This document shows positions 5,752 through 23,610 of a stretch of 64,000 bases of DNA, piece by piece. Numbering within the stretch: position 1 is the first letter of the stretch; the number at the start of each line of letters is the position of its first letter. Both the position numbers and the translations under genes were made by a program. Below the pieces are notes generated by a model, which saw nothing but the letters and a program-made list of their open reading frames with translations, did not search any database and had not been told where the DNA came from. This stretch comes from a virus: positions 1 through 64,000 of the IMG/VR virus record IMGVR_UViG_3300032307_000370; one strand, 5' to 3'.

Positions 5752-7341
5752 ATGCCAAATTCAATAAAATATAATGCAAGTGCGGAAACTTTATCACTTA
5801 AAAAAGGTAACTTTTGGATTGGTACTGGTGATGTTGGGAAAGGTCCGACAAGTACCTCAGGATTTTACAATGGGATCACACCCCCATCCGGTGGGTATAC
5901 AATATATTTAAACAAAGCATCAGGTGGACCATCAATATATGTTGCTTATGATGATACTGAATTAATAAGTATGACTAATAAAATTGCAGGAACAAGTTAT
6001 AGTACGGCAAATGAATGTTTAAATTATTATACATCCCAAACAGATAAAGTTATCTCCAATAAAGAATGTCCAGCAATTATTACAAATGGATTAGTTTTAA
6101 ATATTGATGCAAGTTTTACGCCTTCATACCCAAAAAACGGCACCACATGGTACGATATAAGTGGTGGTGGTAATAATGGGACTTTAATTAATGGGACAAC
6201 CTTTAGTACGGATAATGGTGGTACTATTTTGTTTGACGGTGTGGACGATTATGTTGATATAAATAATAATTCGTCTTTACAGATTGTAGATAATATTACT
6301 ATTGAGATTATAGTTAAAATTAATTCCACAAATATAGGTGATATAAAAGTTATTGCAAATAAATATTCTGGTACGGGTTGGGAATTTCTTTTAGATTCGT
6401 CAGGGAAATTTGTATTAGCAGGAAGAAATGGAGATGGAACCTATTATACTAGTAATAGTCAAACAGTGGTTGCCAACAATAATTACTCTCATTTGGTTGG
6501 TATAAAATCAGGTTTATTATGGCAAACATATGTTAATGGAACTTTAACCTCCACAACAAATGCCAATTCAACAGGTACGTTATCTAACAATACGAATATG
6601 CAGATTGGTAGGGAGGGTCCGAATTACTACACATCCATGTATTTACCATCATTTAAAATATACAACCGAGCTTTATCATCCTCAGAAGTTCTACAAAATT
6701 ATAATGCAACCACATTTTTAGGGTCACAATATAATCCCGCAAATTCAGCTGCGTCAATTTTATCTGTAAACCCATCCGCAACGGATGGATATTATTGGAT
6801 TAATACCAGTTTAGGTCCGAGACAATTATATTGCATCATGTCTCAAGGAGGATGGATGGGAGTTACAAGTGAACTTAGCCCTCAGATTGCAAATTTAGGG
6901 TCATCAGCATCTTGGGAAACTAACACAAATAGAAGATTACAAAGTGCCAACTCTCAAGTATTAAATGTTACGGTTCAAGAAGGTGACTGTGGTTCTCCAA
7001 AATACTATCAATTACGTAGCCCAAGTGTAAACGGATTAAACCATAGTCAAACTATGTTGTTAATACAAAGAGTTACAACCATAGGTCAATGTTCATATAT
7101 AACAGATACGGTTAGTAATGGATATTATACCGGACCAGAATATACCGGAACTTACACTTCTTCCGCAATGTGTACATGGGGTGATGGTAATTTTGCTAAT
7201 ACTTGTTGTGGAGCCCAAAACATGACAGGATTAAAAACTTATTGGGTATTAATAGGTAGTGGTACTAACTCAAGTTTAACTTACCAAGTACAATGTGCCG
7301 GTGGTAGTGGTCAACATTACCATATGTGGTTTGTAAAATAA
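5752..7341 (+). CDS. LamG/concanavalin-like lectin plus fibrinogen-like domain surface protein
   Basis: The protein has 529 residues. Residues 1 to about 110 are an unrecognised N-terminal domain, probably for virion attachment. Residues about 111-315 form a LamG-type (concanavalin A-like) jelly roll: GLVLNIDAS at the start, TILFDGVDDYVDI, IQIGREG-like MQIGREGPNYYTSMY and the closing IYNRALSSSEVLQNY. Residues about 330-529 resemble a fibrinogen-like C-terminal domain (ATDGYYWINTSLGPRQLYCI, then MSQGGWMGV) with several cysteines (CCGAQ, CAGG). Proteins of this build bind carbohydrate. This one probably recognises host surface glycans, or packs against sugars on the neighbouring TP fibres. It has no enzymatic motif. 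The assignment rests on characteristic strands, not a search. Confidence 0.75.
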   Translation: MPNSIKYNASAETLSLKKGNFWIGTGDVGKGPTSTSGFYNGITPPSGGYTIYLNKASGGPSIYVAYDDTELISMTNKIAGTSYSTANECLNYYTSQTDKVISNKECPAIITNGLVLNIDASFTPSYPKNGTTWYDISGGGNNGTLINGTTFSTDNGGTILFDGVDDYVDINNNSSLQIVDNITIEIIVKINSTNIGDIKVIANKYSGTGWEFLLDSSGKFVLAGRNGDGTYYTSNSQTVVANNNYSHLVGIKSGLLWQTYVNGTLTSTTNANSTGTLSNNTNMQIGREGPNYYTSMYLPSFKIYNRALSSSEVLQNYNATTFLGSQYNPANSAASILSVNPSATDGYYWINTSLGPRQLYCIMSQGGWMGVTSELSPQIANLGSSASWETNTNRRLQSANSQVLNVTVQEGDCGSPKYYQLRSPSVNGLNHSQTMLLIQRVTTIGQCSYITDTVSNGYYTGPEYTGTYTSSAMCTWGDGNFANTCCGAQNMTGLKTYWVLIGSGTNSSLTYQVQCAGGSGQHYHMWFVK

Positions 7342-10656: not shown

Positions 10657-11904
10657 ATGAAAATATTTGTTCAAATCGCAGCGTATAGAGATCCTCAATT
10701 GGAGCCAACAATAAAAAATATGTTGGAAAACGCTAAAAGACCCAAAAATTTAAGAATTGGTATTTGTAGACAATACAATCCTGATGATCAATTTGATTTG
10801 TTAGAGGAATATCGTAAAGACAATAGATTCAGAATATTGGATGTTTTATATTCAGATTCAAGAGGAGTTTGTTGGGCAAGAAATCAGGTCCAACAATTAT
10901 ATGAAGGTGAAGAATATACCCTACAAATTGATTCACATATGAGATTTGAGAAGGATTGGGATGATACATTAATTAAAATGATTAAACAACTTCAGAAAAA
11001 AGGTTTTGAGAAACCTTTATTAACGGGTTATGTTTCATCATTTGATCCTGATAATGACCCAGCAGGAAGAGTTCAAGAACCATGGAGAATGGCGTTTGAT
11101 AGATTTATTCCTGAAGGTGCTGTATTCTTCTTACCTGAAACAATTCCGGGTTGGCAAAAAATGAAAGAACCTGTTCCTGCAAGATTTTACTCGGCACACT
11201 TCGCATTTACTTTAGGTCAATTTAGCGAAGAGGTACAACATGATCCTGAATTTTATTTTCACGGGGAAGAAATATCAATTGCGGTAAGAGCATATACTCA
11301 TGGTTATGATTTGTTCCACCCACATAAAGTAGTTATTTGGCACGAATACACTCGTAAGGGTAGAACTAAACAATGGGATGATGATAAAGATTGGGTTAAT
11401 AAAAATAATTTATCTCACCAAAAAAATCGTCAGCTTTTTGGTATGGACGGTGAAGAAGTTACAATGGAATTTGGTAAATATGGTTTTGGTACCGAAAGAA
11501 CATTAAGAGATTATGAAATTTATTCGGGTCTTTTATTTTCAAAGAGAGCAGTTCAACAATATACATTAGATAAAAACTACCCACCTAACCCCCATATTTT
11601 TGAAACCGAAGAAGAATTAATGGCGAGTTATGCATCCATATTCAAACATTGTATTGATATTGGGTTTACCCAAGTTCCTGAAAAAGATTATGAGTTTTGG
11701 GTTGTTGCATTTCATGATGAAAATGATGAAACCATTCATAGACAAGATGCCGATATTAACGAAATTAATATGATGATGAATGATCCTGATGGGTATTGTA
11801 AAGTGTGGAGAGAATTCCAAACCGCACATAAACCAAAATATTGGGTTGTATGGCCTTATAGTACATCAAAAGGTTGGTGTGAAAGAATCTCAGGAAATTT
11901 ATGA
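10657..11904 (+). CDS. GlcNAc-transferase family glycosyltransferase (polypeptide/Skp1-type fold)
   Basis: The 415-residue protein starts KIFVQIAAYRDPQLEPTIKN, the characteristic start of the GlcNAc glycosyltransferase family (Pfam PF11397). It continues with SDSRGVCWARNQVQQLY, a DxD-like site at LQIDSHMRFEKDWDD, FYSAHFAFTLGQF and FYFHGEEISIAVRAYTHGYD, and H-E residues in VIWHEYTRKGR. The best studied relatives add GlcNAc to hydroxyproline in Dictyostelium Skp1, so a protein rather than lipid acceptor is plausible. Residues about 300-415 are an unassigned C-terminal extension. It is the first gene of an operon of eight whose members overlap or lie within 20 bases, immediately after TP2. That position is the main reason to suspect the Thr/Pro tracts are its substrate. 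Confidence 0.8.
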   Translation: MKIFVQIAAYRDPQLEPTIKNMLENAKRPKNLRIGICRQYNPDDQFDLLEEYRKDNRFRILDVLYSDSRGVCWARNQVQQLYEGEEYTLQIDSHMRFEKDWDDTLIKMIKQLQKKGFEKPLLTGYVSSFDPDNDPAGRVQEPWRMAFDRFIPEGAVFFLPETIPGWQKMKEPVPARFYSAHFAFTLGQFSEEVQHDPEFYFHGEEISIAVRAYTHGYDLFHPHKVVIWHEYTRKGRTKQWDDDKDWVNKNNLSHQKNRQLFGMDGEEVTMEFGKYGFGTERTLRDYEIYSGLLFSKRAVQQYTLDKNYPPNPHIFETEEELMASYASIFKHCIDIGFTQVPEKDYEFWVVAFHDENDETIHRQDADINEINMMMNDPDGYCKVWREFQTAHKPKYWVVWPYSTSKGWCERISGNL

Positions 11905-12338
11905 TTTTAATATCTCATAGAGGTAACATTAATGGTAAAAAAGAAGATCTTGAAAATAAACCTCAATATATTGATGAAGCATTAAGTTTAGGTTATAATG
12001 TTGAGGTTGATGTTTGGATGATTGATGGCGTTTTATTTTTAGGTCATGATGATCCACAGTATGGTATAACTCAAGAATGGTTAAATACCCGATACGAACA
12101 TTTATGGATACATTGTAAAAATATAGGAGCAATAGAATGGTTTAATATTATTGGTGGGTTTAATTATTTTTGGCATCAAGAAGATACTTTAACCATAACA
12201 TCAAATGGGTATCTTTGGGTATATCCGGGTAAACAACCCATTAAAAATAGTATTTCAGTATTACCCGAAATGTTTAATGATGATGTTTCGGAATGTATTG
12301 GGATATGTTCTGATTATATAAAAAATTATAATGATTGA
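11901..12338 (+). CDS. Glycerophosphodiester phosphodiesterase-like short protein
   Basis: Overlaps the previous gene by four bases (ATGA), so translation is probably coupled. The 145-residue protein opens ILISHRGNINGK (His6-Arg7) and carries GYNVEVDVW (Glu35, Asp37) and LFLGHDDP (His49). These are in the order of GDPD/TIM-barrel catalytic and metal residues. At 145 residues it is only about half the usual barrel length, so it may be a reduced family member. Similar short HRG proteins occur in surface-polysaccharide loci. The substrate is unknown; removal or transfer of a glycerol-phosphate-like group on the glycan is a guess. Confidence 0.65.
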   Translation: MILISHRGNINGKKEDLENKPQYIDEALSLGYNVEVDVWMIDGVLFLGHDDPQYGITQEWLNTRYEHLWIHCKNIGAIEWFNIIGGFNYFWHQEDTLTITSNGYLWVYPGKQPIKNSISVLPEMFNDDVSECIGICSDYIKNYND

Positions 12339-13686
12339 GTTAATTATATTTGATTTAGACGGAGTATTATTTGATGCAAAAGAAATACATTATGAATCCC
12401 TAAATAAAGCTCTTGGTAATTATTCCATATCTTGGGATGAACATTTATCAATATATGATGGGCTTAAAACAAATCAAAAATTAGAAATACTTCACGACAG
12501 AAAAGATTTACCTAAAGAGTTATTTAAAGACGTGTGGGATAAAAAACAACAATACACACTAGAGTCATTAAAAAACTTAAAACCAAATAACGATATTATC
12601 TTAACGGTATCTAAACTCTCTAAAGATGGGTATAAATTGGCCGTGTGTTCTAATAGTATTAGAAAAACAGTTCTAACTGTTTTATCAAAATTAGGTATCA
12701 TTGAATATTTTGACTTAATACTTTCAAATGAAGATGTAAAAAATTCAAAACCTCATCCTGAAATTTATTGGAAAGCAATATCAATAATCCAATGTTTACC
12801 TGAAGAAACTTTAATCGTTGAAGATTCCCCATATGGTCTTTTATCCGCATCCAGAAGTAAATCCCATGTATTAAGAGTTAAATCAACCTCTGAGGTTAAT
12901 TATGATAACATAACAAATAAAATAAAAGAAATAGAAATGGGTAATGATATTGGTATACCAAAATGGGAAGATAAAAATTTAAATATTTTGATCCCAATGG
13001 CAGGTGCCGGATCAAGATTTCAACAAGCGGGATATACATTTCCTAAACCGTTGATAGATATTAATAATAAACCTATGATACAAGTTGTTGTTGATAATTT
13101 AAATATTGATGCTAATTACATTTATGTTGTGCAAAAAGAACATCGTGAAAAATATAACTTAGATACGATGTTAAATTTAATAACACCTAATTGTAAGATT
13201 GTTGAGGTGGATGGTATAACTGAAGGAGCCGCTTGTACCGCCTTATTGGCAAAAGAATACATTAATAATAACAAACCATTATTCTTTGCAAATTCAGACC
13301 AATATGCGGAGTGGGATTCAAATGAATTTATGTATAAAATGAATGAGACGGATTCTGATGGTGGTATCGTTACGTTTAAATCTTCCCACCCAAAATGGTC
13401 CTTTGCCAAAGTTGACGAAAATAATATGGTAACGGAAGTTGCTGAAAAAAATCCCATATCGGATAATGCAACCGTTGGATTTTACTATTGGAAAAAAGGT
13501 TCCGACTTTGTCAAATACGCGGAAAAAATGGTAGAGAAAAACATAAGGGTTAATAATGAATTTTATGTGTGTCCCGTTTTTAATCAGGCAATAGAAGATA
13601 ATAAAAAAATAAGAATATACGAAATAAAAAATATGTGGGGTCTTGGTACCCCCGAAGATTTAAAAACTTTTCTAAATAAAAAATAA
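12331..13686 (+). CDS. HAD phosphatase-sugar nucleotidyltransferase fusion
   Basis: The 451-residue protein has two domains. Residues 1 to about 205 are a HAD phosphatase of the phosphoglucomutase-like class: IIFDLDGVLFD with Asp8 and Asp10, then LAVCSNSIRKT, and KPHPEIYWKA followed by IVEDSPYGLLSA. Residues about 212-451 are a GT-A-like nucleotidyltransferase: ILIPMAGAGSRFQQAGYTFP, KPLIDINNKPMIQ, then FFANSDQYAEW and WGLGTPEDLKTFL. The pairing suggests two late steps making an NDP-sugar, namely dephosphorylation and then nucleotide transfer to a sugar-1-phosphate. It would supply an activated donor to the neighbouring transferases. It overlaps the preceding gene by eight bases. The sugar cannot be identified from sequence. 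Confidence 0.8.
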   Translation: MIELIIFDLDGVLFDAKEIHYESLNKALGNYSISWDEHLSIYDGLKTNQKLEILHDRKDLPKELFKDVWDKKQQYTLESLKNLKPNNDIILTVSKLSKDGYKLAVCSNSIRKTVLTVLSKLGIIEYFDLILSNEDVKNSKPHPEIYWKAISIIQCLPEETLIVEDSPYGLLSASRSKSHVLRVKSTSEVNYDNITNKIKEIEMGNDIGIPKWEDKNLNILIPMAGAGSRFQQAGYTFPKPLIDINNKPMIQVVVDNLNIDANYIYVVQKEHREKYNLDTMLNLITPNCKIVEVDGITEGAACTALLAKEYINNNKPLFFANSDQYAEWDSNEFMYKMNETDSDGGIVTFKSSHPKWSFAKVDENNMVTEVAEKNPISDNATVGFYYWKKGSDFVKYAEKMVEKNIRVNNEFYVCPVFNQAIEDNKKIRIYEIKNMWGLGTPEDLKTFLNKK

Positions 13687-14558
13687 TGGAAGAACTATCG
13701 TTAGTATTATATACATCCGTGAATAATACCTTAATTGCAAAATTATTTGTCCAAGAGTTTAATAAATTCTCAAATGGATTAAATATTCCAAAATACGTTG
13801 TGAGTAATAATTTTAAATGTGAAACGGATTTTGAGTCAATGGGTTTTAAAAAAATAAATTGTAACATACCACATTGTGATGGAGGAACTCATTTTACAAA
13901 AGTTATGTTAAATTCTTTAAATCAAATTGATTCTGATTACATTTTATTTTTTTTAGAAGATTATATTTTAATGAAAAATATAAAAGTTGATGTGTTAAAT
14001 AACATACTTAATTTTATGAAAAATGAAAATGTAGATCACATTTCATTAATGTCATATGAAGGAGATGATTGGGAATTGTTAGACATTGATTACAAGTCAT
14101 ATAATTTAGATGATGATATTTTTGTAAAAATGAATAAAAAATATCTTTATATGTTTTCTGTTCAACCATGTATATGGAAAAAAGATTCACTTATTAAAAT
14201 ATTAGAAAATAATATTAATGTCAGTATAAACAGTTTTGATACGAGCTACATTAAAAATATGAAAGGACAAGTGAGAAATGTTTTAATTGGTGAAAATTAT
14301 GAAACTCCATCTGATTTTTGGGATTATAACTTTAAACATATTGCATTAAAGAAAAATCCATTAACCACAAATTACGCTTTTGATGAACATAATGGTGAAG
14401 ACGATTATTTTTTATTTCTTTATTCTGAGATAATGAGACACGGTAAATTTAATATTTATTCTCATGAAAATAATAAAATTTTTATAAATAATTTCTTATC
14501 TTCTAATAACATTACCTCACAAAATAAAGAATATTCAAAATACTTTCACAATGATTGA
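13686..14558 (+). CDS. Putative glycosyltransferase (GT-A-like)
   Basis: The 290-residue protein's start overlaps the previous stop (TAATG). ELSLVLYTSVNNTL opens a Rossmann-like strand, and SDYILFFLEDYILMKN looks like the acidic metal-site strand of a GT-A enzyme (LED in place of DxD). GGTHFTKVMLNSLNQI lies between. The C-terminal half has aromatic acceptor-side segments (FSVQPCIWKKDSLIKIL, ETPSDFWDYNF). Family membership is uncertain; operon position supports a glycan role. Confidence 0.6.
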   Translation: MEELSLVLYTSVNNTLIAKLFVQEFNKFSNGLNIPKYVVSNNFKCETDFESMGFKKINCNIPHCDGGTHFTKVMLNSLNQIDSDYILFFLEDYILMKNIKVDVLNNILNFMKNENVDHISLMSYEGDDWELLDIDYKSYNLDDDIFVKMNKKYLYMFSVQPCIWKKDSLIKILENNINVSINSFDTSYIKNMKGQVRNVLIGENYETPSDFWDYNFKHIALKKNPLTTNYAFDEHNGEDDYFLFLYSEIMRHGKFNIYSHENNKIFINNFLSSNNITSQNKEYSKYFHND

Positions 14559-15387
14559 AGTCACATATCAAAAACCTAACGGTGTAACTTGGTCAGTTAC
14601 TAATATGTATGAAAAATTTTTTAATTACCTATCAGAAAATTATGAGTGTATACATAGAACCCCAACCTGTGTTGGTTATGGATCACCTAATTCTCCACAT
14701 CATATGACTATAAAAAATCTTATTAATAATAAGTATTTCGTTGTATCATATTGGGATTACACAGGTGACATATATAATCCCGAATATGGGTGGGACGTAC
14801 ATAATATGGTGGATTTATTTACATCAAGTGGTGTTCATTATGATTTTAATTTTACTCCTTTTTCATACATGGCATATTCAATAGAATTTGAGGAATACAC
14901 CAAAAATATAGTACCATTTGATGAAAAACCAAATAATGAATTATTTTTTAGGGGATTTTTACACGGAATGAGAAAAAAGTTACATTTATTAAACGAAATC
15001 CCAATGAGTGATGAAAGAATAGAACCTTTTGATTATTTTACGGAATTAACAAATAATAAAATATGTTTATCTCTTAATGGTGTTGGTGAAATATGTAATA
15101 GAGATATGGAAATTTTATCATCAGGATCTGTTTTATTGAGACCATTATTAAGACAGAAATTCCACGATGATTTAATACCTAATGTTCATTATATCCCATT
15201 TGATGTAAGTTTTGATCATGTAGAACAAATGAAAATTATAAAAGAAAAATATAATGAAATAAAAGATAATGATGATCTTTTAAGAGAAATATCTAAGAAC
15301 GGACACGAGTGGTACATGAAAAATGGTACAACTCAAGGTAATGTTGATATTTTAAAAAACATACTTAATATTGATTTAATCATATAA
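14551..15387 (+). CDS. Putative glycosyltransferase (CAP10/GT90- or exostosin-like)
   Basis: The 278-residue protein overlaps the previous gene by eight bases. The C-terminal half has KICLSLNGVGEICNRDMEIL, then SSGSVLLRPLLRQKFHDDL and VHYIPFD. This follows the pattern of GT-B enzymes of the CAP10/exostosin type, where a Gly-rich loop precedes an SGSV..R nucleotide-sugar site. RGFLHGMRKKL in the middle could be the basic phosphate-binding segment. The N-terminal half has no clear motif. It is probably one of the transferases building the phage glycan. Confidence 0.55.
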   Translation: MIEVTYQKPNGVTWSVTNMYEKFFNYLSENYECIHRTPTCVGYGSPNSPHHMTIKNLINNKYFVVSYWDYTGDIYNPEYGWDVHNMVDLFTSSGVHYDFNFTPFSYMAYSIEFEEYTKNIVPFDEKPNNELFFRGFLHGMRKKLHLLNEIPMSDERIEPFDYFTELTNNKICLSLNGVGEICNRDMEILSSGSVLLRPLLRQKFHDDLIPNVHYIPFDVSFDHVEQMKIIKEKYNEIKDNDDLLREISKNGHEWYMKNGTTQGNVDILKNILNIDLII

Positions 15388-15405
15388 ACAAAAAATATAA
15401 TAAAA

Positions 15406-15777
15406 ATGGAATACCCAATAAGTGAAATTTTAGACAGATATTCAATTGCCGTTTTAAAAAAACAAAGATTAGATGCTGATAATGATATTGAATTAAAAGA
15501 TTTGTCGGAAGTAATTGAGGAATATAAAAAAATTAATTCCCAAGTTATTGAAACTTACATTGATAAATTAATTGCAATTAATGGGGATATCTGGGATTTA
15601 GAATCGGATATTAGAAAAGGTAAAGAAGGTGAGTTAGGGTTAGAAGAAGTTGGTAGAAGAGCAATAAAAATTAGAGAATTTAACAAAATCAGAGTTGGAT
15701 ATAAAAATATTATAGTTGAAACTTTTGGTGAGGGTTATAAAGATGTTAAAATGAATCATGCAAGCTCAGATGAATAA
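15406..15777 (+). CDS. Small helical protein typical of glycan loci (DUF6165-like)
   Basis: The 123-residue protein starts MEYPISEILDRYSIAVLKKQ and is almost entirely helical and charged (IEEYKKINSQVIETYIDKLI). Short proteins with a P/S-ISEIxDRxSIxxLKxxR start sit beside glycosyltransferases in other polysaccharide and phage loci; the family name is recalled, not searched. No catalytic motif is visible. It may scaffold or regulate the transferases. Confidence 0.5.
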   Translation: MEYPISEILDRYSIAVLKKQRLDADNDIELKDLSEVIEEYKKINSQVIETYIDKLIAINGDIWDLESDIRKGKEGELGLEEVGRRAIKIREFNKIRVGYKNIIVETFGEGYKDVKMNHASSDE

Positions 15778-17362
15778 AATAATAATTTCCCTAACAACCG
15801 TACCCGAACGTTTAACACAAAACGTTGATGATGGATTCAGATTGGTTATGAAGTCAATTTGTGAACAAAATTATAAAAACTATGAGGTTCATTTAAATTT
15901 ACCTTTAATTTATAATGTAACAGGTGAAGAATATATAATTCCTCAATGGTTAGAAGAATATCAAGAAACATATAAGCACCTAAAAATATTTAGAACTGAA
16001 GATATGGGACCACCAACAAAAGTGATCCCAACTATTATTAGAGAATCGGATGACACATTATTAATTGTTGTTGATGACGATTTAATTTATCATGAAAATA
16101 TGATTTTAGAACATATTAAATATCATATTGAATTACCTGATTCTGTTGTATTATATGATGGAAGAAGTTTGGTTACACCTAAATATGGTGATTTAAGAGA
16201 TTCTTGGGTTTTAAGTGTAAATGAACCATTGGAAGTAAAAGATTTACAACATTACAAATCAGCATCTTATTTTGTTAGATATTTTGAAGAAGATTTTTTC
16301 AATGACTTTGTTGGTAAAACAAAATCGGATGATGTATTAATGTCTTTCTATTTTAAATTCAAAAAGATTAAAATGTTTGTTGTACCTTATGGACCTGATA
16401 TTGATAAATTGTCAACTTATGATGATTGGTATAAGTTTCAAGGTGTAACCACATTTCCCGTTATAAGACATTCAAATAGTGTTTTAAATACGGGGTGTAA
16501 TCACCCAACAATGTTAGAGGATCAACCAAGATTCTTTATACCTGAAGAATTCAAGATTATTGAAAATCCTAATTACAAACCATCTAATCAAGTTATAACT
16601 CAACCTATAAGTCAAGTAATCATAGAGAATGGTATTGTTAGACCAAACATTCCGGAAATAACTGAAATACATAACTCAAGAGATTTAATTTATAAGTTGG
16701 TTGGCGAATTTAATAAAATGGAAAAACGTTTTTGGGATACTACTCAACTAACAGGTGAACAACATAACAACCAAAGAAGTAAACCAGCACCTTACATTAA
16801 AAAGACATCTGAAATTGCAAAAATTTTAGGTCTTAAAACTTTGGTTGAAATTGGTGCAACAAGACATGGTATTACACCTAAATGTATTAATTATTATTTT
16901 TTAGGTAATGATCCTTTTGTTTCACCACCTTGTTGTGGTGATGGTCACGGTGGAATAATGTTTACGTTAGAAGGTTTTGATGTTTATTCAGTTGATATTG
17001 ATGAGAATTGCTCAATACACGCAGATTGGTCATTTGGTTCATTAAATAGATCCATACCTGAAAATTTACATTTAAATATCCCTAAAGATGGTATTGAATT
17101 TTTAAAAGAATTTGACAAAAATATTGATATTCTATTTTTGGACGGATGGGATGTTGGTACCGAACAATATAAGGAAAAACATTTGGAGGCTTTTGAAGTA
17201 TGTAAAGATAAATTATCTGACACTCATTTAATCCTAATTGACGACACCGACTTTAATTTAACAAATGAAGGTAAAGACGCGTTATTATCTCCACATTTAT
17301 TATCGTTAGGATATATTCTATTATTTGACGGTAGACAAAAACTATACATAAATAAAATATAA
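15770..17362 (+). CDS. Two-domain GT2-like glycosyltransferase + methyltransferase-like protein
   Basis: The ATG at 15770 (MNKIIISLTTVPER) is preferred over the ATG at 15758 because the hydrophobic first strand of the fold follows it at once; it overlaps the previous gene by eight bases. Residues 1 to about 270 are GT-A-like, with SICEQNYKNYEVHLNLP and the metal motif LLIVVDDDLIYH. Residues about 300-530 resemble a SAM-methyltransferase-like Rossmann domain: LKTLVEIGATRHGITPKCIN, FDVYSVDIDENCSIHADW, DILFLDGWDVGTEQY and LILIDDTDF. A Cys pair (PPCCGDG) lies between. Transfer of a sugar and methylation of the glycan are both plausible. The second domain could instead be a class I-like enzyme of another type. 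Confidence 0.7.
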   Translation: MNKIIISLTTVPERLTQNVDDGFRLVMKSICEQNYKNYEVHLNLPLIYNVTGEEYIIPQWLEEYQETYKHLKIFRTEDMGPPTKVIPTIIRESDDTLLIVVDDDLIYHENMILEHIKYHIELPDSVVLYDGRSLVTPKYGDLRDSWVLSVNEPLEVKDLQHYKSASYFVRYFEEDFFNDFVGKTKSDDVLMSFYFKFKKIKMFVVPYGPDIDKLSTYDDWYKFQGVTTFPVIRHSNSVLNTGCNHPTMLEDQPRFFIPEEFKIIENPNYKPSNQVITQPISQVIIENGIVRPNIPEITEIHNSRDLIYKLVGEFNKMEKRFWDTTQLTGEQHNNQRSKPAPYIKKTSEIAKILGLKTLVEIGATRHGITPKCINYYFLGNDPFVSPPCCGDGHGGIMFTLEGFDVYSVDIDENCSIHADWSFGSLNRSIPENLHLNIPKDGIEFLKEFDKNIDILFLDGWDVGTEQYKEKHLEAFEVCKDKLSDTHLILIDDTDFNLTNEGKDALLSPHLLSLGYILLFDGRQKLYINKI

Positions 17363-17371
17363 TACTACATA

Positions 17372-19753
17372 ATGGAAGGTTTTTTTGATAAAGTATTACA
17401 TCATTACGGTAAAAAAGAAGAGAAGTTGTTCATCATAAATATTGGTGCAATGGATGGGTTAATGTTTGATGATATGTCGGCATATATTGATGTATATAAA
17501 TTTGATGGTTTATATGTTGAACCAATGAAACCTCATTATGAAAGATTATTATCAAATAAGAGCAATAACCCTAATAATAAATTTGAGAATTCTGCTATCA
17601 GTGACTTCAATGGTACTGTAGTAATGAAAACTATCCCAATTGAAATTATTGACGATGGTATCGTTAATGATGCGTTTTATGGTATGAGTGTTATTGACCC
17701 ATCAAAGAATGGTATGGGTAGTGAAGAGGATAGAGAACTTGTTGAAAAATATTCCATTGACGTTGAGGTAAATTGCATTACTTGGGAAACCCTAGTTGAA
17801 AAACATAATATAAAAGATTTTGATGTATTATCTATTGATACTGAGGGTCATGATTATACAATATTTAAACAAATAGATCTTAATAAGTATAGACCAAAAT
17901 TAATTCGTTTAGAATGGATTAATATGTCCGATGAAGAAAAAATTAACACAACAAAAAAATTAAGCGATCACGGATATGTTTATGAATTATTATATGATTT
18001 TGATATTGACGCAATAAGAGTTGATGTTTATAATGAATTAAAATTTTCATTTGAAAAGAAAGAAGAAAATATGGAAACAGGAGGATTAACATTAGTAACT
18101 GGTTTATGGGATATTAAAAGATCTGAATTATCAGAAGGATGGTCAAGAAGTTTTGGTGGTCACTATTTAAATAAATTTGAGGAACTATTAAAAATAAAAT
18201 CTAATATGATAATTTTTGGTGATTCTGAATTACAAAAGTTTGTTGAGGAAAGAAGATCACCAAATAATACTCAATTTATTTTAAAAGAATTAGATTGGTT
18301 TATTAATAATGACTACTATGAAAAAATACAAAATATAAGATTAAATTCGGAATGGTATAATAACGCAGGTTGGTTATCTGATTCAACTCAAGCCAAATTA
18401 GAATTATATAATCCATTAGTCATGTCAAAAGTATTTTTACTTCATGATGCAAAAATATTAGACAAATTTAATTCAGAAAAATTATTTTGGATTGATGCTG
18501 GTTTATCAAATACCGTTCATCCAGGATATTTTACTCACGATAATGTCTTAGATAAAATAAAAAATATTACAAATAAAATGTTATTTGTATGTTTTCCCTA
18601 TGGAGCAAGTAATGAAATTCATGGTTTTGATTATAATGAAATGAAACGATTAACAAACGATGAACCAAATATTGTTGCAAGAGGAGGATTTTTTGGCGGG
18701 GATAAAGATTCAATATCAGAATTAAATTCACTATATTATAATTTAATGATACAAACATTAAATGGTGGATTTATGGGAACCGAAGAAAGTTTATTTACTT
18801 TATTATTATATCAAAATCCACAACTTATAGATTATTGTGAGATAGATTCAAATGGTTTGTTATCTAAATTTTTTGAGGACGTAAAAAATGATAATGTGGA
18901 AGTTAAAAATAAAACTAAATTATTAACAGTATCAAACAGATCAAATAATGTTGGCGTATATGTCATCACATTTAATTCACCCAATCAATTTAGAACACTA
19001 ATAAAATCCATGTTAGATTATGATCCTAAATTTATAAATCAAACTAAAAAGTTTTTATTGGATAACTCAACGGATTTATCAACAACAGATGAATATCTCC
19101 AATTATGTGAAGAATATGGTTTTGAACATATTAAAAAAGATAACATTGGTATAACAGGAGGTAGACAATTTATTGCCGAACATTTTGATGAACAAGAAGA
19201 TTTGGGTTATTATTATTTCTTTGAGGATGATATGTTTTTCTATAATGGAAATGATTTAAATTGTAGAAATGGTTTTAGTCGTCACATAAAAAATATTTTT
19301 GATACAACATTAGATATTATTAAAACTGAAAATTTTGATTTTTTAAAATTAAATTTTAGTGAATTTTATGGATCACACGATAAACAGTGGGCGTGGTATA
19401 ATGTCCCTCAAGAATTTAGACAATCACATTGGCCAAACAACCCAAGATTACCACAACAAGGCTTAGACCCAAATTCACCTAATTTAGAATATAAACATAT
19501 TAAATCATATAGGGGAGTTCCTTACGTTTCAGGTGAAATATTCCTTTCCAATTGGCCAATATTAATGACTAAAGAAGGAAATTATAATTGTTATTTAAAA
19601 ACAAAATTCCAAAATCCATACGAACAAACATTAATGAGTCATTGTTATCAAGAAACCGTAAAAGGTAATATAAAACCAGGTCTTTTATTAGCAACTCCGA
19701 CTGAACATAATAGATTTGATCATTATGATGGTTCTTTAAGAAAAGAATGTTAA
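17372..19753 (+). CDS. FkbM methyltransferase - HtrL/WlaTC-like - GT-A glycosyltransferase fusion
   Basis: The 793-residue protein has three parts. Residues 1 to about 230 are FkbM-like: FIINIGAMDGLMFDDMSAYI, GLYVEPMKPHYERLL, SAISDFNGTVVM and DFDVLSIDTEGHDYTIFKQ. Residues about 233-520 match the HtrL/YibB/WlaTC pattern: LTLVTGLWDIKRSELSEGW followed by YLNKFEELLKIKSNMIIFGD, FWIDAGLSN and FMGTEESLFTLLLYQNP. Residues about 524-793 are GT-A-like: VGVYVITFNSPNQFRTLIK, GITGGRQFIAEHFDE, and YYYFFEDDMFFY with an EDD metal site. It closes the sugar operon and is followed by TP3. It is the second FkbM-containing multienzyme in the window, suggesting an O-methylated glycan. Domain limits are approximate. 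Confidence 0.75.
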   Translation: MEGFFDKVLHHYGKKEEKLFIINIGAMDGLMFDDMSAYIDVYKFDGLYVEPMKPHYERLLSNKSNNPNNKFENSAISDFNGTVVMKTIPIEIIDDGIVNDAFYGMSVIDPSKNGMGSEEDRELVEKYSIDVEVNCITWETLVEKHNIKDFDVLSIDTEGHDYTIFKQIDLNKYRPKLIRLEWINMSDEEKINTTKKLSDHGYVYELLYDFDIDAIRVDVYNELKFSFEKKEENMETGGLTLVTGLWDIKRSELSEGWSRSFGGHYLNKFEELLKIKSNMIIFGDSELQKFVEERRSPNNTQFILKELDWFINNDYYEKIQNIRLNSEWYNNAGWLSDSTQAKLELYNPLVMSKVFLLHDAKILDKFNSEKLFWIDAGLSNTVHPGYFTHDNVLDKIKNITNKMLFVCFPYGASNEIHGFDYNEMKRLTNDEPNIVARGGFFGGDKDSISELNSLYYNLMIQTLNGGFMGTEESLFTLLLYQNPQLIDYCEIDSNGLLSKFFEDVKNDNVEVKNKTKLLTVSNRSNNVGVYVITFNSPNQFRTLIKSMLDYDPKFINQTKKFLLDNSTDLSTTDEYLQLCEEYGFEHIKKDNIGITGGRQFIAEHFDEQEDLGYYYFFEDDMFFYNGNDLNCRNGFSRHIKNIFDTTLDIIKTENFDFLKLNFSEFYGSHDKQWAWYNVPQEFRQSHWPNNPRLPQQGLDPNSPNLEYKHIKSYRGVPYVSGEIFLSNWPILMTKEGNYNCYLKTKFQNPYEQTLMSHCYQETVKGNIKPGLLLATPTEHNRFDHYDGSLRKEC

Positions 19754-19791: not shown

Positions 19792-21681
19792 ATGGAATTT
19801 TTCATTAAAAAGAACGCTACTCTCCCAATATTAAAATTACAAGTCGTTAAAGACGGTAGAAGTGATTACAATTCTTTCATGGATATGATTGAGGAGTCAG
19901 CTATTTTCTTTTCAATGACTAATGTTGAAACTGGAATCCCTAAAATTTCCACAAACCCAGCAGGATTTGTTGAGAAAGAACTCATGGATCCAAATGCCGA
20001 TCCCGAATATTATATTTATTACCAATTCAAACCACAAGATACAAATAAAGTTGCGAGATACGAAGCTCAATTCTTATTAAGAAATTCTCAAGGAGTTTTA
20101 ATATTACCAATAAGAGAACAATTATACATTAACGTACAAGAAAGTTTCATTGCGGAAGATTTACCGTATAATGATTGTTACTTAATAGATTTCCCTTGTT
20201 GTAATACAGTTTGTCCGACAACAACAACTACAACGACCGTATGTTGTTGTCCTCAGGATACTCCAACACCAACACCAACGGAAACGCCTGTACCAACACC
20301 ATTTGTATCTGAACCGGCTCCAATTGATGAATTCTGTATGTCTGTGTTTGTGGAAACTCCAACACCAACACCAACACCAACTCTTACTCCAACAAACACT
20401 CCAATACCTTGTTGTGATACTTGGTATTTTTATGGTGGGTACTCATCAACAGGATCCACATTCACATATGTTGACTGTTCAGGTAATACAAATACATTCA
20501 GCGCCGCAACAAGTGAAGCGGGTTATATATGTGCAACTTCTGCCGAATTAATTAGTGGTAATGGTACAACTTACCTTCAGGAACCTTGTGGATGTCCTTC
20601 AGTTCAACCATCACCAACACCGACATCAACACAAACTCCAACTCCAACACAAACTCCAACAAATACTCAAACACCTACAGTAACACCAACGAATACTCAA
20701 ACACCTACGGTGACACCAACAATTACCAAAACGCCGGGGTTATCACCTAGCGTAACACCAACCAAAACAAAAACACCTACACCTACACCAACCAATAATT
20801 CATATGTAACATATAGAGTTGTTGCTTGTTGTACTGAGAATATTTTCTATGTTGTTTTACCTAATTATATGGTACCTGGTAATATAATTGTTGGTAACGA
20901 TAACCAATGTTATACTGTATTAAATCAACAGGCAGGACCAATAAGTGTTGTATGGAATGGTCAATCATTATATACCGATTGCTCAACTTGTGTGGCAGAT
21001 AACCCATGTCCGGTATCTCCATCTCCTACACCTGTTGCATCATCAACACCAACACCCACACCAACTAAAACAAGTACACCTACACCTACACCAACTAAAA
21101 CAGTAACACCAACTCCAGGATTATCACCTACACCTACACCAACTAAAACACCAACACCAACTCCTGTTAATGCTGCGATTGGTCCATTTACATCATTTGT
21201 TTCATTTGAGGCGTACGATTGTAATAATCCGTTACCAACTCCAACACCAACTAAAACCCCAACACCAACTCCAACACAAAATATTATTCCAACACCGTAT
21301 CAGTTTCAAACAGGTTATAATCTTATTTGTAATGGTTCTAATGTTGTTATAACAAACCCATCTTCTATAAGTGATAGTTTAATAAAATGTCAACTTAACA
21401 CTTACGCTTGTTCTTTAACTAATTGTGGTGGGGTTACATCCCAAGTTCAAGGAATGAGCAAAAGATGTTATAGTCCGCCGGCGTTAGGTGTAACAATTTA
21501 TGATTTTACTCCTAACGGATCAGGTATATATCCACCTCAAGTAAATCAGAGGTTTATTTACAATCCAATCCAATATGGTTTATGTAATAATTTACAAAAT
21601 CTTTATATGGTTAGAACCGATAATAATGGTGTTATAGTTCAATTTGACCCATTCACCTCAATACCTAATATAACTTGTTAA
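19792..21681 (+). CDS. Thr/Pro-linker Cys-module surface protein with structured head (TP3)
   Basis: The 629-residue protein has a folded N-terminal domain (1 to about 140; FFIKKNATLPILKLQVVKDG) that looks like a virion-docking beta domain. A Thr run (CPTTTTTTTVCCCPQ) follows. Four TP/TK linkers then alternate with Cys modules: about 204-268 (CCDTWYFYGGYSS to CGCPS) and about 338-406 (YRVVACCTENIFY to CVADNPCP), with a longer C-terminal domain rich in cysteines (about 500-629, ending PFTSIPNITC). Compared with TP1 and TP2 the linkers are shorter and contain Lys. It lies between the sugar operon and the protease gene, 15 bases before the latter, and is likely co-transcribed with it and TP4. 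No enzymatic motif is seen. Confidence 0.75.
   Translation: MEFFIKKNATLPILKLQVVKDGRSDYNSFMDMIEESAIFFSMTNVETGIPKISTNPAGFVEKELMDPNADPEYYIYYQFKPQDTNKVARYEAQFLLRNSQGVLILPIREQLYINVQESFIAEDLPYNDCYLIDFPCCNTVCPTTTTTTTVCCCPQDTPTPTPTETPVPTPFVSEPAPIDEFCMSVFVETPTPTPTPTLTPTNTPIPCCDTWYFYGGYSSTGSTFTYVDCSGNTNTFSAATSEAGYICATSAELISGNGTTYLQEPCGCPSVQPSPTPTSTQTPTPTQTPTNTQTPTVTPTNTQTPTVTPTITKTPGLSPSVTPTKTKTPTPTPTNNSYVTYRVVACCTENIFYVVLPNYMVPGNIIVGNDNQCYTVLNQQAGPISVVWNGQSLYTDCSTCVADNPCPVSPSPTPVASSTPTPTPTKTSTPTPTPTKTVTPTPGLSPTPTPTKTPTPTPVNAAIGPFTSFVSFEAYDCNNPLPTPTPTKTPTPTPTQNIIPTPYQFQTGYNLICNGSNVVITNPSSISDSLIKCQLNTYACSLTNCGGVTSQVQGMSKRCYSPPALGVTIYDFTPNGSGIYPPQVNQRFIYNPIQYGLCNNLQNLYMVRTDNNGVIVQFDPFTSIPNITC
20596..20799 (+). 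repeat. Thr/Pro linker repeat of TP3 (first long tract)
   Basis: Encodes PSVQPSPTPTSTQTPTPTQT followed by [12 protein letters not shown] units and [11 protein letters not shown], with one GLSPS interruption. Confidence 0.8.
21010..21168 (+). repeat. Thr/Pro/Lys linker repeat of TP3 (second tract)
   Basis: Encodes repeated STPTPTPTK and TVTPTPGLSPTPTPTK units between two Cys-rich domains. Confidence 0.8.
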
Positions 21682-21696
21682 AAATACATATTAATA

Positions 21697-23610
21697 ATGA
21701 TAACAAAAGATATAAATAAAAAATTAAAAGAATGGAATGATAAAACACCATCAGATATTGGTGTTGGTTATTCTTTTAAAAAAACAGATGGTGTTTATAC
21801 CGGAGAAATTTGTATATCATTTACAGTAAAAGAAAAAAAACCATTATCAGAATTATCCGAAGATGAAATATTACCTTCAGAAATATATGTAAATGATAAA
21901 TTAACACTTAAAACTGATGTAATACAAGTTGGTGAGATTCATGCATTACAATGTAGTAGGACCACACCAATAACCGCTAACCAACCTTGTGAGCCTTTTA
22001 TATTAACGGCACCAACAAATAGATCGGCATTCGCAACATTAAAAGGAGGTATATCAATAACTTCTGTTAATCAAAGTAATTCCGTTGGGACATTAGGTAT
22101 GATCGTTCAAGACATTCATACAGATGCTTTAGTTGGTTTAACAAATAATCACGTTGTTATTGGTAATTCAATTGCCGCTCAGTACCAAAATCTAAACGTA
22201 TACTTAGGAAATAATTTCCCAACAACAAATGAAATTTTACCAAATAGTAATTTTACTTGTCAACCCGGTGAGTTTGGTTTTCAAACAAATCTTAAATATG
22301 GTCAAGTTGTGAGATATGTACCTTTAATACCGAACACTAGTATCAACTTAACGGCTGGAGGATCATCCACCTCACCTTCTTTAGTCCCTAAAAATAGAGT
22401 AGATGGGGCATTAGTAAGTATTGATTGTAGTAAAATAGATTTTAATCAATCTTGGAAATTTTCGGGATTTGAATCTATAATGACTACTCCGTTACCTTTT
22501 GCAACAACAGCGGAGATTGATAATTTGATGGTTACAAACCCACAATTATATAGTACAGGTAGATCAACAGGACCAAAAGGTTTAGGAACTCCTGGTTGTG
22601 AATTAAGATTATATGGTATTAATCAAGCGGCAACAGTTGGGGGTTATAAATGGCACTTATCAGGTGGAAATCAGTATGGTACAAATGGCGCTTACGATAA
22701 TAGATTAATCGCATTTTACAAACCAAGTGGGAACCCATCCCAACCTCATTGTTTATGGCCGTGCGCAGCCGGAGATTCAGGATCAATGTTAATTGCTAAT
22801 TTTGGAACCCAAGCTTCACCAAATTTTAAAGTAATAGGTTTAGTTTTTGCGGGAAATAGTCAACCAGCATATCCAAATACGTGGCCGGATGCAAATAACC
22901 ATACTGTTTTTAATTGGACTTACTCAAATTACACAGATTGGTTAGGTTTTGCGTGTCGTATAGATGATGTCGCATCTCAATTAGGAATAAAAGCATGGAC
23001 AGGAGGAACGGCACCATTAGTTAATCCTTTATCAATAAATGTAATAACATTACCGGGTTTATCTCCTATTACAGCAACAACGTGTCAAAATAGTTATTAC
23101 TATCAGGTTGGAACAACAATGACACAAAATTCTTGTGGAGGGGCAAATTTCGGAGCAAAAAGTATATTACTTCAAAGTCCACAATTCCTTAATGGTCAAA
23201 CATTAAGTTATGTGGTTAGACATCCTAACTGTGGTGGTTTTAATTATAGTGTTGGGTTAATATGGTCTTTAACTGACTTTACAACAAATGATGTTTTATC
23301 TTATAGTTTATTAATGGAGGATATAAATGCCGGAGGTACAAGTCCAAGCGGATATTTTGTTCATTGGAAAGTTACAAACATACCTCCAACCCAAACATCA
23401 ATTAATTTATGGACATCCGGACCAACAGGATGGCAGGCTGGTGCAACAATACAACAAACGGATTGGTTCCCTAATTCGGTTAATCCAAATGGATATGGTG
23501 GACCTTGTCCTCCGGGTCATACCTATAGAATATCCATTACCGCATTTTTAACACCAGCCGCTGGTGGTGGACAGATAACAAGTAATTTACTTACATTTAT
23601 TAGTAGTTAA
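21697..23610 (+). CDS. Trypsin-like serine protease with C-terminal beta domain
   Basis: The 637-residue protein carries a chymotrypsin-fold triad in the right order. His152 is in VGLTNNHVVIGNS, Asp237 in KNRVDGALVSID and Ser362 in CAAGDSGSMLIANF, followed by VIGLVFAG, which resembles the S1 specificity-pocket strand. Residues 1-100 are a separate N-terminal domain (LKEWNDKTPSDIGVGYSFKK). Residues about 440-637 are a Gly/Thr-rich beta domain with NCGG and NSCGG Cys motifs, possibly for virion binding or carbohydrate recognition. There is no signal peptide. It sits between TP3 and TP4 with 15- and 26-base gaps. Possible roles are maturation of the neighbouring adhesins or degradation of host surface proteins during infection. 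The triad is seen; the role is inferred. Confidence 0.8.
   Translation: MITKDINKKLKEWNDKTPSDIGVGYSFKKTDGVYTGEICISFTVKEKKPLSELSEDEILPSEIYVNDKLTLKTDVIQVGEIHALQCSRTTPITANQPCEPFILTAPTNRSAFATLKGGISITSVNQSNSVGTLGMIVQDIHTDALVGLTNNHVVIGNSIAAQYQNLNVYLGNNFPTTNEILPNSNFTCQPGEFGFQTNLKYGQVVRYVPLIPNTSINLTAGGSSTSPSLVPKNRVDGALVSIDCSKIDFNQSWKFSGFESIMTTPLPFATTAEIDNLMVTNPQLYSTGRSTGPKGLGTPGCELRLYGINQAATVGGYKWHLSGGNQYGTNGAYDNRLIAFYKPSGNPSQPHCLWPCAAGDSGSMLIANFGTQASPNFKVIGLVFAGNSQPAYPNTWPDANNHTVFNWTYSNYTDWLGFACRIDDVASQLGIKAWTGGTAPLVNPLSINVITLPGLSPITATTCQNSYYYQVGTTMTQNSCGGANFGAKSILLQSPQFLNGQTLSYVVRHPNCGGFNYSVGLIWSLTDFTTNDVLSYSLLMEDINAGGTSPSGYFVHWKVTNIPPTQTSINLWTSGPTGWQAGATIQQTDWFPNSVNPNGYGGPCPPGHTYRISITAFLTPAAGGGQITSNLLTFISS

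What the first reader, a model, noticed from the sequence alone, without database searches (positions are those of the whole stretch)
21697..23610. Trypsin-like protease inside the adhesin cluster
A full His152-Asp237-Ser362 triad sits in a protein with no signal peptide between two TP-repeat genes. S1-fold enzymes are rare in phage genomes. It may trim the adhesins, act as a virion-borne enzyme on host surface protein layers, or cut itself.
Basis: partly seen in the sequence, partly recalled or inferred. Interest (0 to 1): 0.7.

Follow-up and report, generated by a model that had tools for sequence, protein, structure and literature searches.

The report
NAL1-type protease in phage tail-fibre genes
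This phage gene encodes a real trypsin-fold protease of the plant NARROW LEAF 1 type, joined to a lipid-binding-protein-like (PEBP) domain; it belongs to a large, undescribed family that sits next to tail and fibre genes in many environmental phages, so the virus probably carries it on its tail to cut proteins on its host's surface.

Summary
The gene at 21697-23610 is real and single-copy in its 127.7-kb phage record. All three residues are invariant in 60 aligned relatives. A 60-sequence AlphaFold model matches rice NARROW LEAF 1 (NAL1) best: Z 27.8 over residues 1-440, against Z 17.2 for alpha-lytic protease. It is therefore a NAL1-type protease (NAL1_N-like domain plus chymotrypsin fold), not a plain trypsin.

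A search of IMG/VR found 193 viral stretches encoding relatives. Most of the 64 distinct proteins examined stand alone (404-520 aa). Others carry T/P- or T-rich linkers, PKD or DUF285 domains after the same conserved tail segment. Sixty-one of 62 upstream neighbours lie on the same strand, usually within 30 bp. Neighbours are enriched for large and repeat-linker proteins. In separate clades the next gene is a tail-fibre protein or the tail sheath. One tandem paralogue carries the protease on the same T/P-repeat tail and tip as the neighbouring fibre-like protein.

Best explanation: a tail-fibre-associated protease acting on host surface proteins (confidence 0.55). Fibre maturation and an intracellular role are not excluded.

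The parts
21697..23610 (+). Gene for the 637-aa NAL1-type protease with C-terminal PEBP domain
   Evidence: ORF; single copy in the 127,725-base record; six relatives at 73-85% identity
21697..22026 (+). N-terminal NAL1_N-like domain (residues about 1-110)
   Evidence: Structural match to NAL1 runs from model residue 1; NAL1_N PF25608 matches 20 of 60 family members, best E 6.2e-7, the window copy only at 12.9 bits, below cut-off
22033..23004 (+). Chymotrypsin-fold protease core (residues about 113-436)
   Evidence: Alpha-lytic protease Z 17.2, 192/198 residues, rmsd 2.4 A; pLDDT about 90 over much of it
22150..22152 (+). Catalytic His152 codon (TNNHVVI)
   Evidence: 60/60 conserved
22402..22404 (+). 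Catalytic Asp236 codon (VDGAL)
   Evidence: 60/60 conserved
22777..22779 (+). Catalytic Ser361 codon (GDSGS)
   Evidence: 60/60 conserved
23008..23136 (+). Conserved C-terminal tail segment of the protease unit (residues about 438-480, ..YYQVGTT..N.C); most relatives end here and fusions start after it
23230..23559 (+). PEBP / YbhB-RKIP-like domain (residues 512-621)
   Evidence: Pfam PF01161 45.3 bits, cut-off 24; only in the window's own close relatives
19792..21681 (+). Upstream T/P-repeat protein, probable fibre/adhesin (context)
   Evidence: its repeat modules and tip motif recur on the protease paralogue P0004
23637..28274 (+). Downstream T/P-repeat protein, probable fibre/adhesin (context)
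   Evidence: syntenic in L002-L007

Best explanation
The gene encodes a catalytically competent NAL1-type trypsin-fold serine protease that is a component, or close partner, of the phage tail-fibre apparatus. The N-terminal NAL1_N-like domain plus protease core plus a 45-residue conserved tail segment form one unit. Different phages leave it bare or extend it with T/P-rich repeats, T-rich linkers, PKD/DUF285 domains or, here, a PEBP domain. In this phage I infer that it is displayed on the virion next to the T/P-repeat fibres and cleaves host surface proteins during adsorption, with the PEBP domain as an accessory binding module. Shown: fold (predicted), invariant triad, purifying selection, genomic linkage to tail/fibre genes, module swapping with a T/P-repeat protein. 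Inferred: presence on the virion, activity, substrate at the host surface, role of PEBP.
For: Fold: NAL1 Z 27.8 over 332 residues, model range 1-440; top 34 Foldseek PDB hits are all NAL1; profile-to-PDB sequence search gives nine NAL1 sequences as best matches, E 0.002-0.018. Triad and GDSGS 60/60. dN/dS about 0.2. Context over 64 distinct proteins in 20 clusters at >=55% identity: 124 of 126 neighbours co-directional, 88/126 are >=400 aa against 88/491 other ORFs in the same stretches, 54/126 have repeat linkers against 44/491. Direct neighbours are a tail-fibre protein in L074, L123 and L077 and the tail sheath in L028. Fusions: T/P repeats (P0004), PKD+DUF285 (L032; L111), T-rich linkers (L077, L110). 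The C-half of P0004 is homologous to the upstream fibre-like gene of this window, including an 85%-identical tip over 26 residues, so the protease unit can replace that protein's N-terminal domain on the same tail. Conserved cysteines (86, 301 in 60/60; 98, 352 in 58-59/60) would suit an extracellular, disulphide-bonded protein.
Against: No virion proteomics or activity data exist. A distant NAL1-like protein in the 484-kb phage LR756508.1 lies among non-structural genes, so the family is not always tied to tails. Plant NAL1 acts inside the cell (PMC12915138). Host and surface substrate are unknown; one clade (L019) has a transcription-regulator-like gene directly downstream. The linkage is to fibre genes, not proof of attachment to them.
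Confidence: 0.55

Rival explanations
1. Assembly or maturation protease: it cuts the neighbouring fibre proteins (or itself) during virion assembly, for instance trimming their tips, and need not act on the host.
For: Gene lies between two fibre-like genes with 15- and 26-bp gaps and is adjacent to fibre or tail genes in most clades. Stand-alone copies predominate, as expected for a trans-acting enzyme.
Against: The neighbouring candidate substrates share no common sequence across clades (neighbours of L019, L035, L037 have no match to the window's T/P genes) while the protease unit is conserved. It is repeatedly fused to adhesion-type domains, which suits display rather than processing.
Confidence: 0.22
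2. Intracellular effector: like plant NAL1, it degrades host regulatory or defence proteins after expression or injection.
For: No signal peptide (sequence); NAL1 architecture, and NAL1 degrades a TOPLESS-like corepressor in the cell (PMC12915138); the LR756508.1 homologue lies outside structural genes.
Against: Genomic linkage to tail/fibre genes and fusions to adhesin-type modules; conserved cysteines.
Confidence: 0.13
3. The protease fold is kept only as a structural or binding module, without catalysis.
For: NAL1-like domains here are exchanged like structural modules.
Against: H, D, S and GDSGS are invariant in 60/60 across about 34-85% identity, which a purely structural role would not require.
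Confidence: 0.05

Closest known systems
NARROW LEAF 1 (NAL1) family, PDB 7y77, 8pmi, 8hau; Pfam NAL1_N PF25608 and Nal1_C PF25819
   Same: Same two-part architecture over residues 1-440 (Z 27.8, rmsd 3.6 A, 332 residues); His motif NH and GDSG Ser motif; best PDB hits by sequence profile.
   Different: Only 12-17% identical; below Pfam cut-off in the window copy; phage tail-fibre context; own C-terminal tail segment and variable fusions; ATP binding and oligomer state untested.
Alpha-lytic protease / Streptomyces griseus protease B (bacterial S1 proteases)
   Same: Protease core superposes over nearly the whole enzyme (Z 17.2, 192/198 residues).
   Different: Those are secreted enzymes without the NAL1_N-like domain (from knowledge).
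PEBP / YbhB / RKIP family (PF01161)
   Same: Residues 512-621 score 45.3 bits against a cut-off of 24; D542, H556, H608 correspond to the three cavity residues (residue list from PMC8793217).
   Different: The second Asp and the Arg of the usual salt bridge appear replaced by N544 and T609 in all five members; TIGR00481 score is below its cut-off; fused to a protease.
PHROG 20754 'protease' and the putative serine protease of Aeropyrum coil-shaped virus
   Same: phrog_20754 matches residues 18-159, E 1.6e-14; the archaeal virus protein is a weak tblastn match.
   Different: The PHROG match covers only the front part; the archaeal virus is unrelated and its tblastn match has E = 1.
Virus NIOZ-UU157 protein A0A7S9XDX3
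   Same: 34% identical, TM-score 0.85 on the target, 449 aa: the same stand-alone type.
   Different: Uncharacterised; at 449 aa it is too short to hold the PEBP extension as well.
Tail-spike enzymes of phages (depolymerases)
   Same: Works-like analogy: an enzymatic domain within a modular tail-fibre locus (from knowledge).
   Different: Those mostly cut polysaccharides; here the enzyme is a serine protease. Not a membership claim.

Membership tests
NAL1-type serine protease | Chymotrypsin fold with His-Asp-Ser triad and GDSG | tested here: met
   60/60 invariant; fold matches. Triad distances not measured directly.
NAL1-type serine protease | NAL1_N-like domain in front of the protease core | tested here: met
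   By fold: NAL1 alignment runs from model residue 1 to 440. By sequence: NAL1_N in 20/60 members, best E 6.2e-7; window copy 12.9 bits and P0004 24 bits, both below the cut-off of 27.
NAL1-type serine protease | Nal1_C C-terminal domain | tested here: inconclusive
   Six of 60 members match weakly, best E 0.035.
NAL1-type serine protease | Oligomer formation, ATP binding, measured protease activity | not testable with these tools
   Needs biochemistry.
Trypsin (S1A specificity) | Asp189 (six residues before the catalytic Ser) for Arg/Lys specificity | tested here: not met
   Position is Pro355 in 60/60; equivalence by the minus-six rule, not by coordinates.
PEBP family | Score above Pfam PF01161 gathering cut-off | tested here: met
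   45.3 vs 24 bits.
PEBP family | Five conserved polar residues (two Asp, two His, Arg; PMC8793217) | tested here: inconclusive
   D, H, H kept (D542, H556, H608); second Asp and Arg appear as N544, T609 in 5/5. Local alignment is weak (E 0.07).
YbhB/YbcL subfamily TIGR00481 | Score above NCBIfam cut-off | tested here: not met
   34.6 vs 57.75 bits.
Virion tail-fibre-associated enzyme | Encoded in a tail/fibre gene cluster | tested here: met
   exception LR756508.1.
Virion tail-fibre-associated enzyme | Present in the virion and active on host surface protein | not testable with these tools
   Needs virion mass spectrometry and adsorption assays.

The most novel reading that the evidence does not exclude
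The phage tail carries a regulated protease: a NAL1-type enzyme with its own PEBP domain in cis, which either senses a membrane or lipid head group at the host surface or acts as a built-in inhibitor (the PEBP-family member Tfs1 inhibits carboxypeptidase Y), so that the protease is released only on host contact. More broadly, a large family of environmental phages uses virion-borne NAL1-type proteases, a 'protein depolymerase' counterpart of polysaccharide-cutting tail spikes.
Probability: 0.12. Interest if true: 0.85.

Novelty: new variant of a known kind. Interest (0 to 1): 0.52.

Why it matters
NAL1 is known as a plant yield and flowering gene, and no paper in the library holds both 'narrow leaf 1' and 'bacteriophage'. 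A widespread phage family with that architecture in tail-fibre cassettes would suggest that some phages attack host surface proteins with a virion-borne protease, in the way others use polysaccharide depolymerases. It also gives a compact protein set in which to test what the NAL1_N domain and PEBP domains do, and a possible source of new proteases. The modular fusions make the hypothesis testable by virion mass spectrometry and one point mutant.

Tried and rejected
First AlphaFold model with five close sequences failed (mean pLDDT 28.6); discarded. phmmer of the single sequence against PDB gave nothing useful; the profile was needed. Whole-protein tblastn against INPHARED found no relative, nor did the PEBP part; one weak hit came from L020. 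The genome-contig scan found no relative with the patterns used, which says little, since NAL1_N does occur in the control genome of Methanosarcina acetivorans. The conserved tail segment was tested as a shared docking motif in other proteins of the loci: it occurs only in the protease family. A weak Kunitz_BPTI match in the upstream T/P protein (13.9 bits, cut-off 21) was rejected as a cysteine-pattern coincidence. The PEBP part is modelled with low confidence (pLDDT 30-50), so it rests on sequence only; no fold claim is made for it. No literature on a virion-associated tail protease of this sort was found with the terms tried; absence in this library is weak evidence.

Full report
OBSERVATION. 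The record is a 127,725-base virus contig in which this protease is the only copy. The N-terminus is polar and charged, so no signal peptide. The motifs are TNNHVVI, NRVDGAL and AAGDSGS.

WHAT IT IS. Pfam finds no protease family in the window copy but a clear PEBP domain at 512-621 (45.3 bits, cut-off 24); PHROGs gives a 'protease' family for residues 18-159 (E 1.6e-14). Six IMG/VR contigs carry close relatives (73-85% identity), and profile searches reach much further: 37 loci, then 193 stretches, of which the best 80 were kept as 79 loci. Sixty sequences were aligned (A5). H152, D236, S361, the GDSGS motif, N151, Pro355, C86 and C301 are identical in all 60. dN/dS against three close relatives is about 0.18-0.22 over the whole gene.

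FOLD. With A5 the AlphaFold model is good over most of residues 1-480 and poor over the PEBP part (mean pLDDT 70.6, many blocks of 85-97 in the first 480 residues). Foldseek's 34 best PDB chains are all rice NARROW LEAF 1, followed by bacterial S1 proteases such as alpha-lytic protease and S. griseus protease B. VIA-align gives NAL1 Z 27.8 (332 residues, rmsd 3.6 A, model 1-440, NAL1 93-454) and alpha-lytic protease Z 17.2 (192 of 198 residues, 2.4 A, model 113-436). Independently, the sequence profile of 27 members has NAL1 as its nine best PDB sequences (E 0.002-0.018), and 20 of 60 members match Pfam NAL1_N (best E 6.2e-7). The N-terminal 110 residues thus correspond to the NAL1_N domain. 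This is a NAL1-type protease. It is trypsin-like in fold only: the position six before the Ser is an invariant Pro, not trypsin's Asp189 (inference from spacing).

ARCHITECTURE. Nearly all members share a 45-residue tail segment after the core (..G.S..KT..C.G.TYWQVG.T..N.C), found in no other protein of these loci. Most members end there (404-520 aa). In others a C-terminal extension begins after it: PEBP (window clade), T/P repeats (P0004 in L004/L005/L007), a T/P-containing extension (L024), PKD + DUF285 (L032; L111 also a weak cohesin match), T- and ST-rich linkers (L077, L110). Tandem copies occur in L004/L005/L007 and L083. P0004 is only 38% identical to the main copy yet keeps all three catalytic residues.

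CONTEXT. Of 64 distinct proteins (20 clusters at >=55% identity), 61 of 62 upstream neighbours are on the same strand, usually within 30 bp. Neighbours are large (88/126 of at least 400 aa against 88/491 of other ORFs) and rich in T/P or T-rich linkers (54/126 against 44/491). These counts are not corrected for relatedness within clusters. In separate clades the next gene downstream is a tail-fibre protein (phrog_8469 / phrog_8763; L074, L123, L077) or the tail sheath (L028). The C-half of P0004 matches the upstream T/P protein of this window in two blocks, including the tip NAAxGPFTSFVxFExYxC (85% over 26 residues), while in L002 the same tip ends the T/P protein and in L007 it ends the protease paralogue. 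So the protease unit and the fibre-like N-terminal domain have been exchanged on the same repeat tail. This is the best sequence evidence that the protease is physically a fibre module. Conversely, the distant homologue in the 484-kb phage LR756508.1 is short and lies among non-structural genes, so not every phage NAL1-like protein is a tail protein.

PEBP. Within PF01161, residues D542, H556 and H608 correspond to the cavity Asp and two His, whereas the Asp and Arg of the usual salt bridge seem to be N544 and T609 in all five members (residue roles from PMC8793217). The domain, in this form, was found only in this clade. Binding of phospholipids and inhibition of carboxypeptidase Y are both reported for PEBP proteins (PMC8793217), hence two readings: surface-binding module or cis-inhibitor. 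Neither is tested.

MECHANISM. Most likely the protein is displayed with the tail fibres and cleaves host surface protein, opening a way to the receptor or releasing the particle (confidence 0.55). Predicted fold, triad, selection, linkage and module exchange are shown; virion location, activity and substrate are inferred. Main rival: a maturation protease for the neighbouring fibres (0.22). An intracellular effector by analogy with plant NAL1, which degrades a TOPLESS-like corepressor (PMC12915138), is less likely (0.13).

NOVELTY. The enzyme class is known; the setting is not described in the library searched. It is a new variant of a known kind: a NAL1-type protease family in phage tail-fibre cassettes, here with a PEBP fusion. 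The host is unknown: the nearest DNA polymerases are Salinibacter phages at 23%, the nearest tail sheath a Microcystis phage at 31%.

Noticed in passing
10657-19753: A run of glycosyltransferase and sugar-modifying genes (for example phrog_24687 glycosyltransferase, E 2.5e-172) lies directly upstream of the T/P-repeat genes and is partly conserved in relatives. It may glycosylate the Thr/Pro-rich linkers of the fibres.
   Followed up: partly
L007:4895-7986 and window 21166-21222: The tip motif GPFTSFVxFExYxC sits at the end of the protease paralogue P0004 in L007 but inside or at the end of the T/P protein in the window and L002, a trace of recombination between fibre and protease genes.
   Followed up: yes
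L130:6989-7996 (LR756508.1): A 484-kb uncultured phage has a 335-aa NAL1-like protein (SNNHVI, VDCAL, GDSGS) among genes that by eye look like tRNA-repair, peptide deformylase and IMP-dehydrogenase genes, outside any tail cluster: a second, different setting for this fold in phages.
   Followed up: partly
L083:3998-6563: Two divergent protease copies in tandem, apparently independent of the duplication in L004/L005/L007.
   Followed up: no
window 19792-20196: The first about 135 residues of the upstream T/P protein are 92% identical in L004 while its repeat part varies, the usual pattern of a fibre with a fixed virion-anchoring end.
   Followed up: no
window 5752-7341: ORF matching virion structural PHROG 8510 (E 6.8e-18), upstream of the glycosyltransferase run, so structural genes lie on both sides of the cluster.
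   Followed up: no
window 15758-19753: The 534- and 793-aa ORFs of the sugar-gene run look like fused enzymes (glycosyltransferase-like and methyltransferase-like parts by eye); L002 carries only a 558-aa counterpart of the second one.
   Followed up: no
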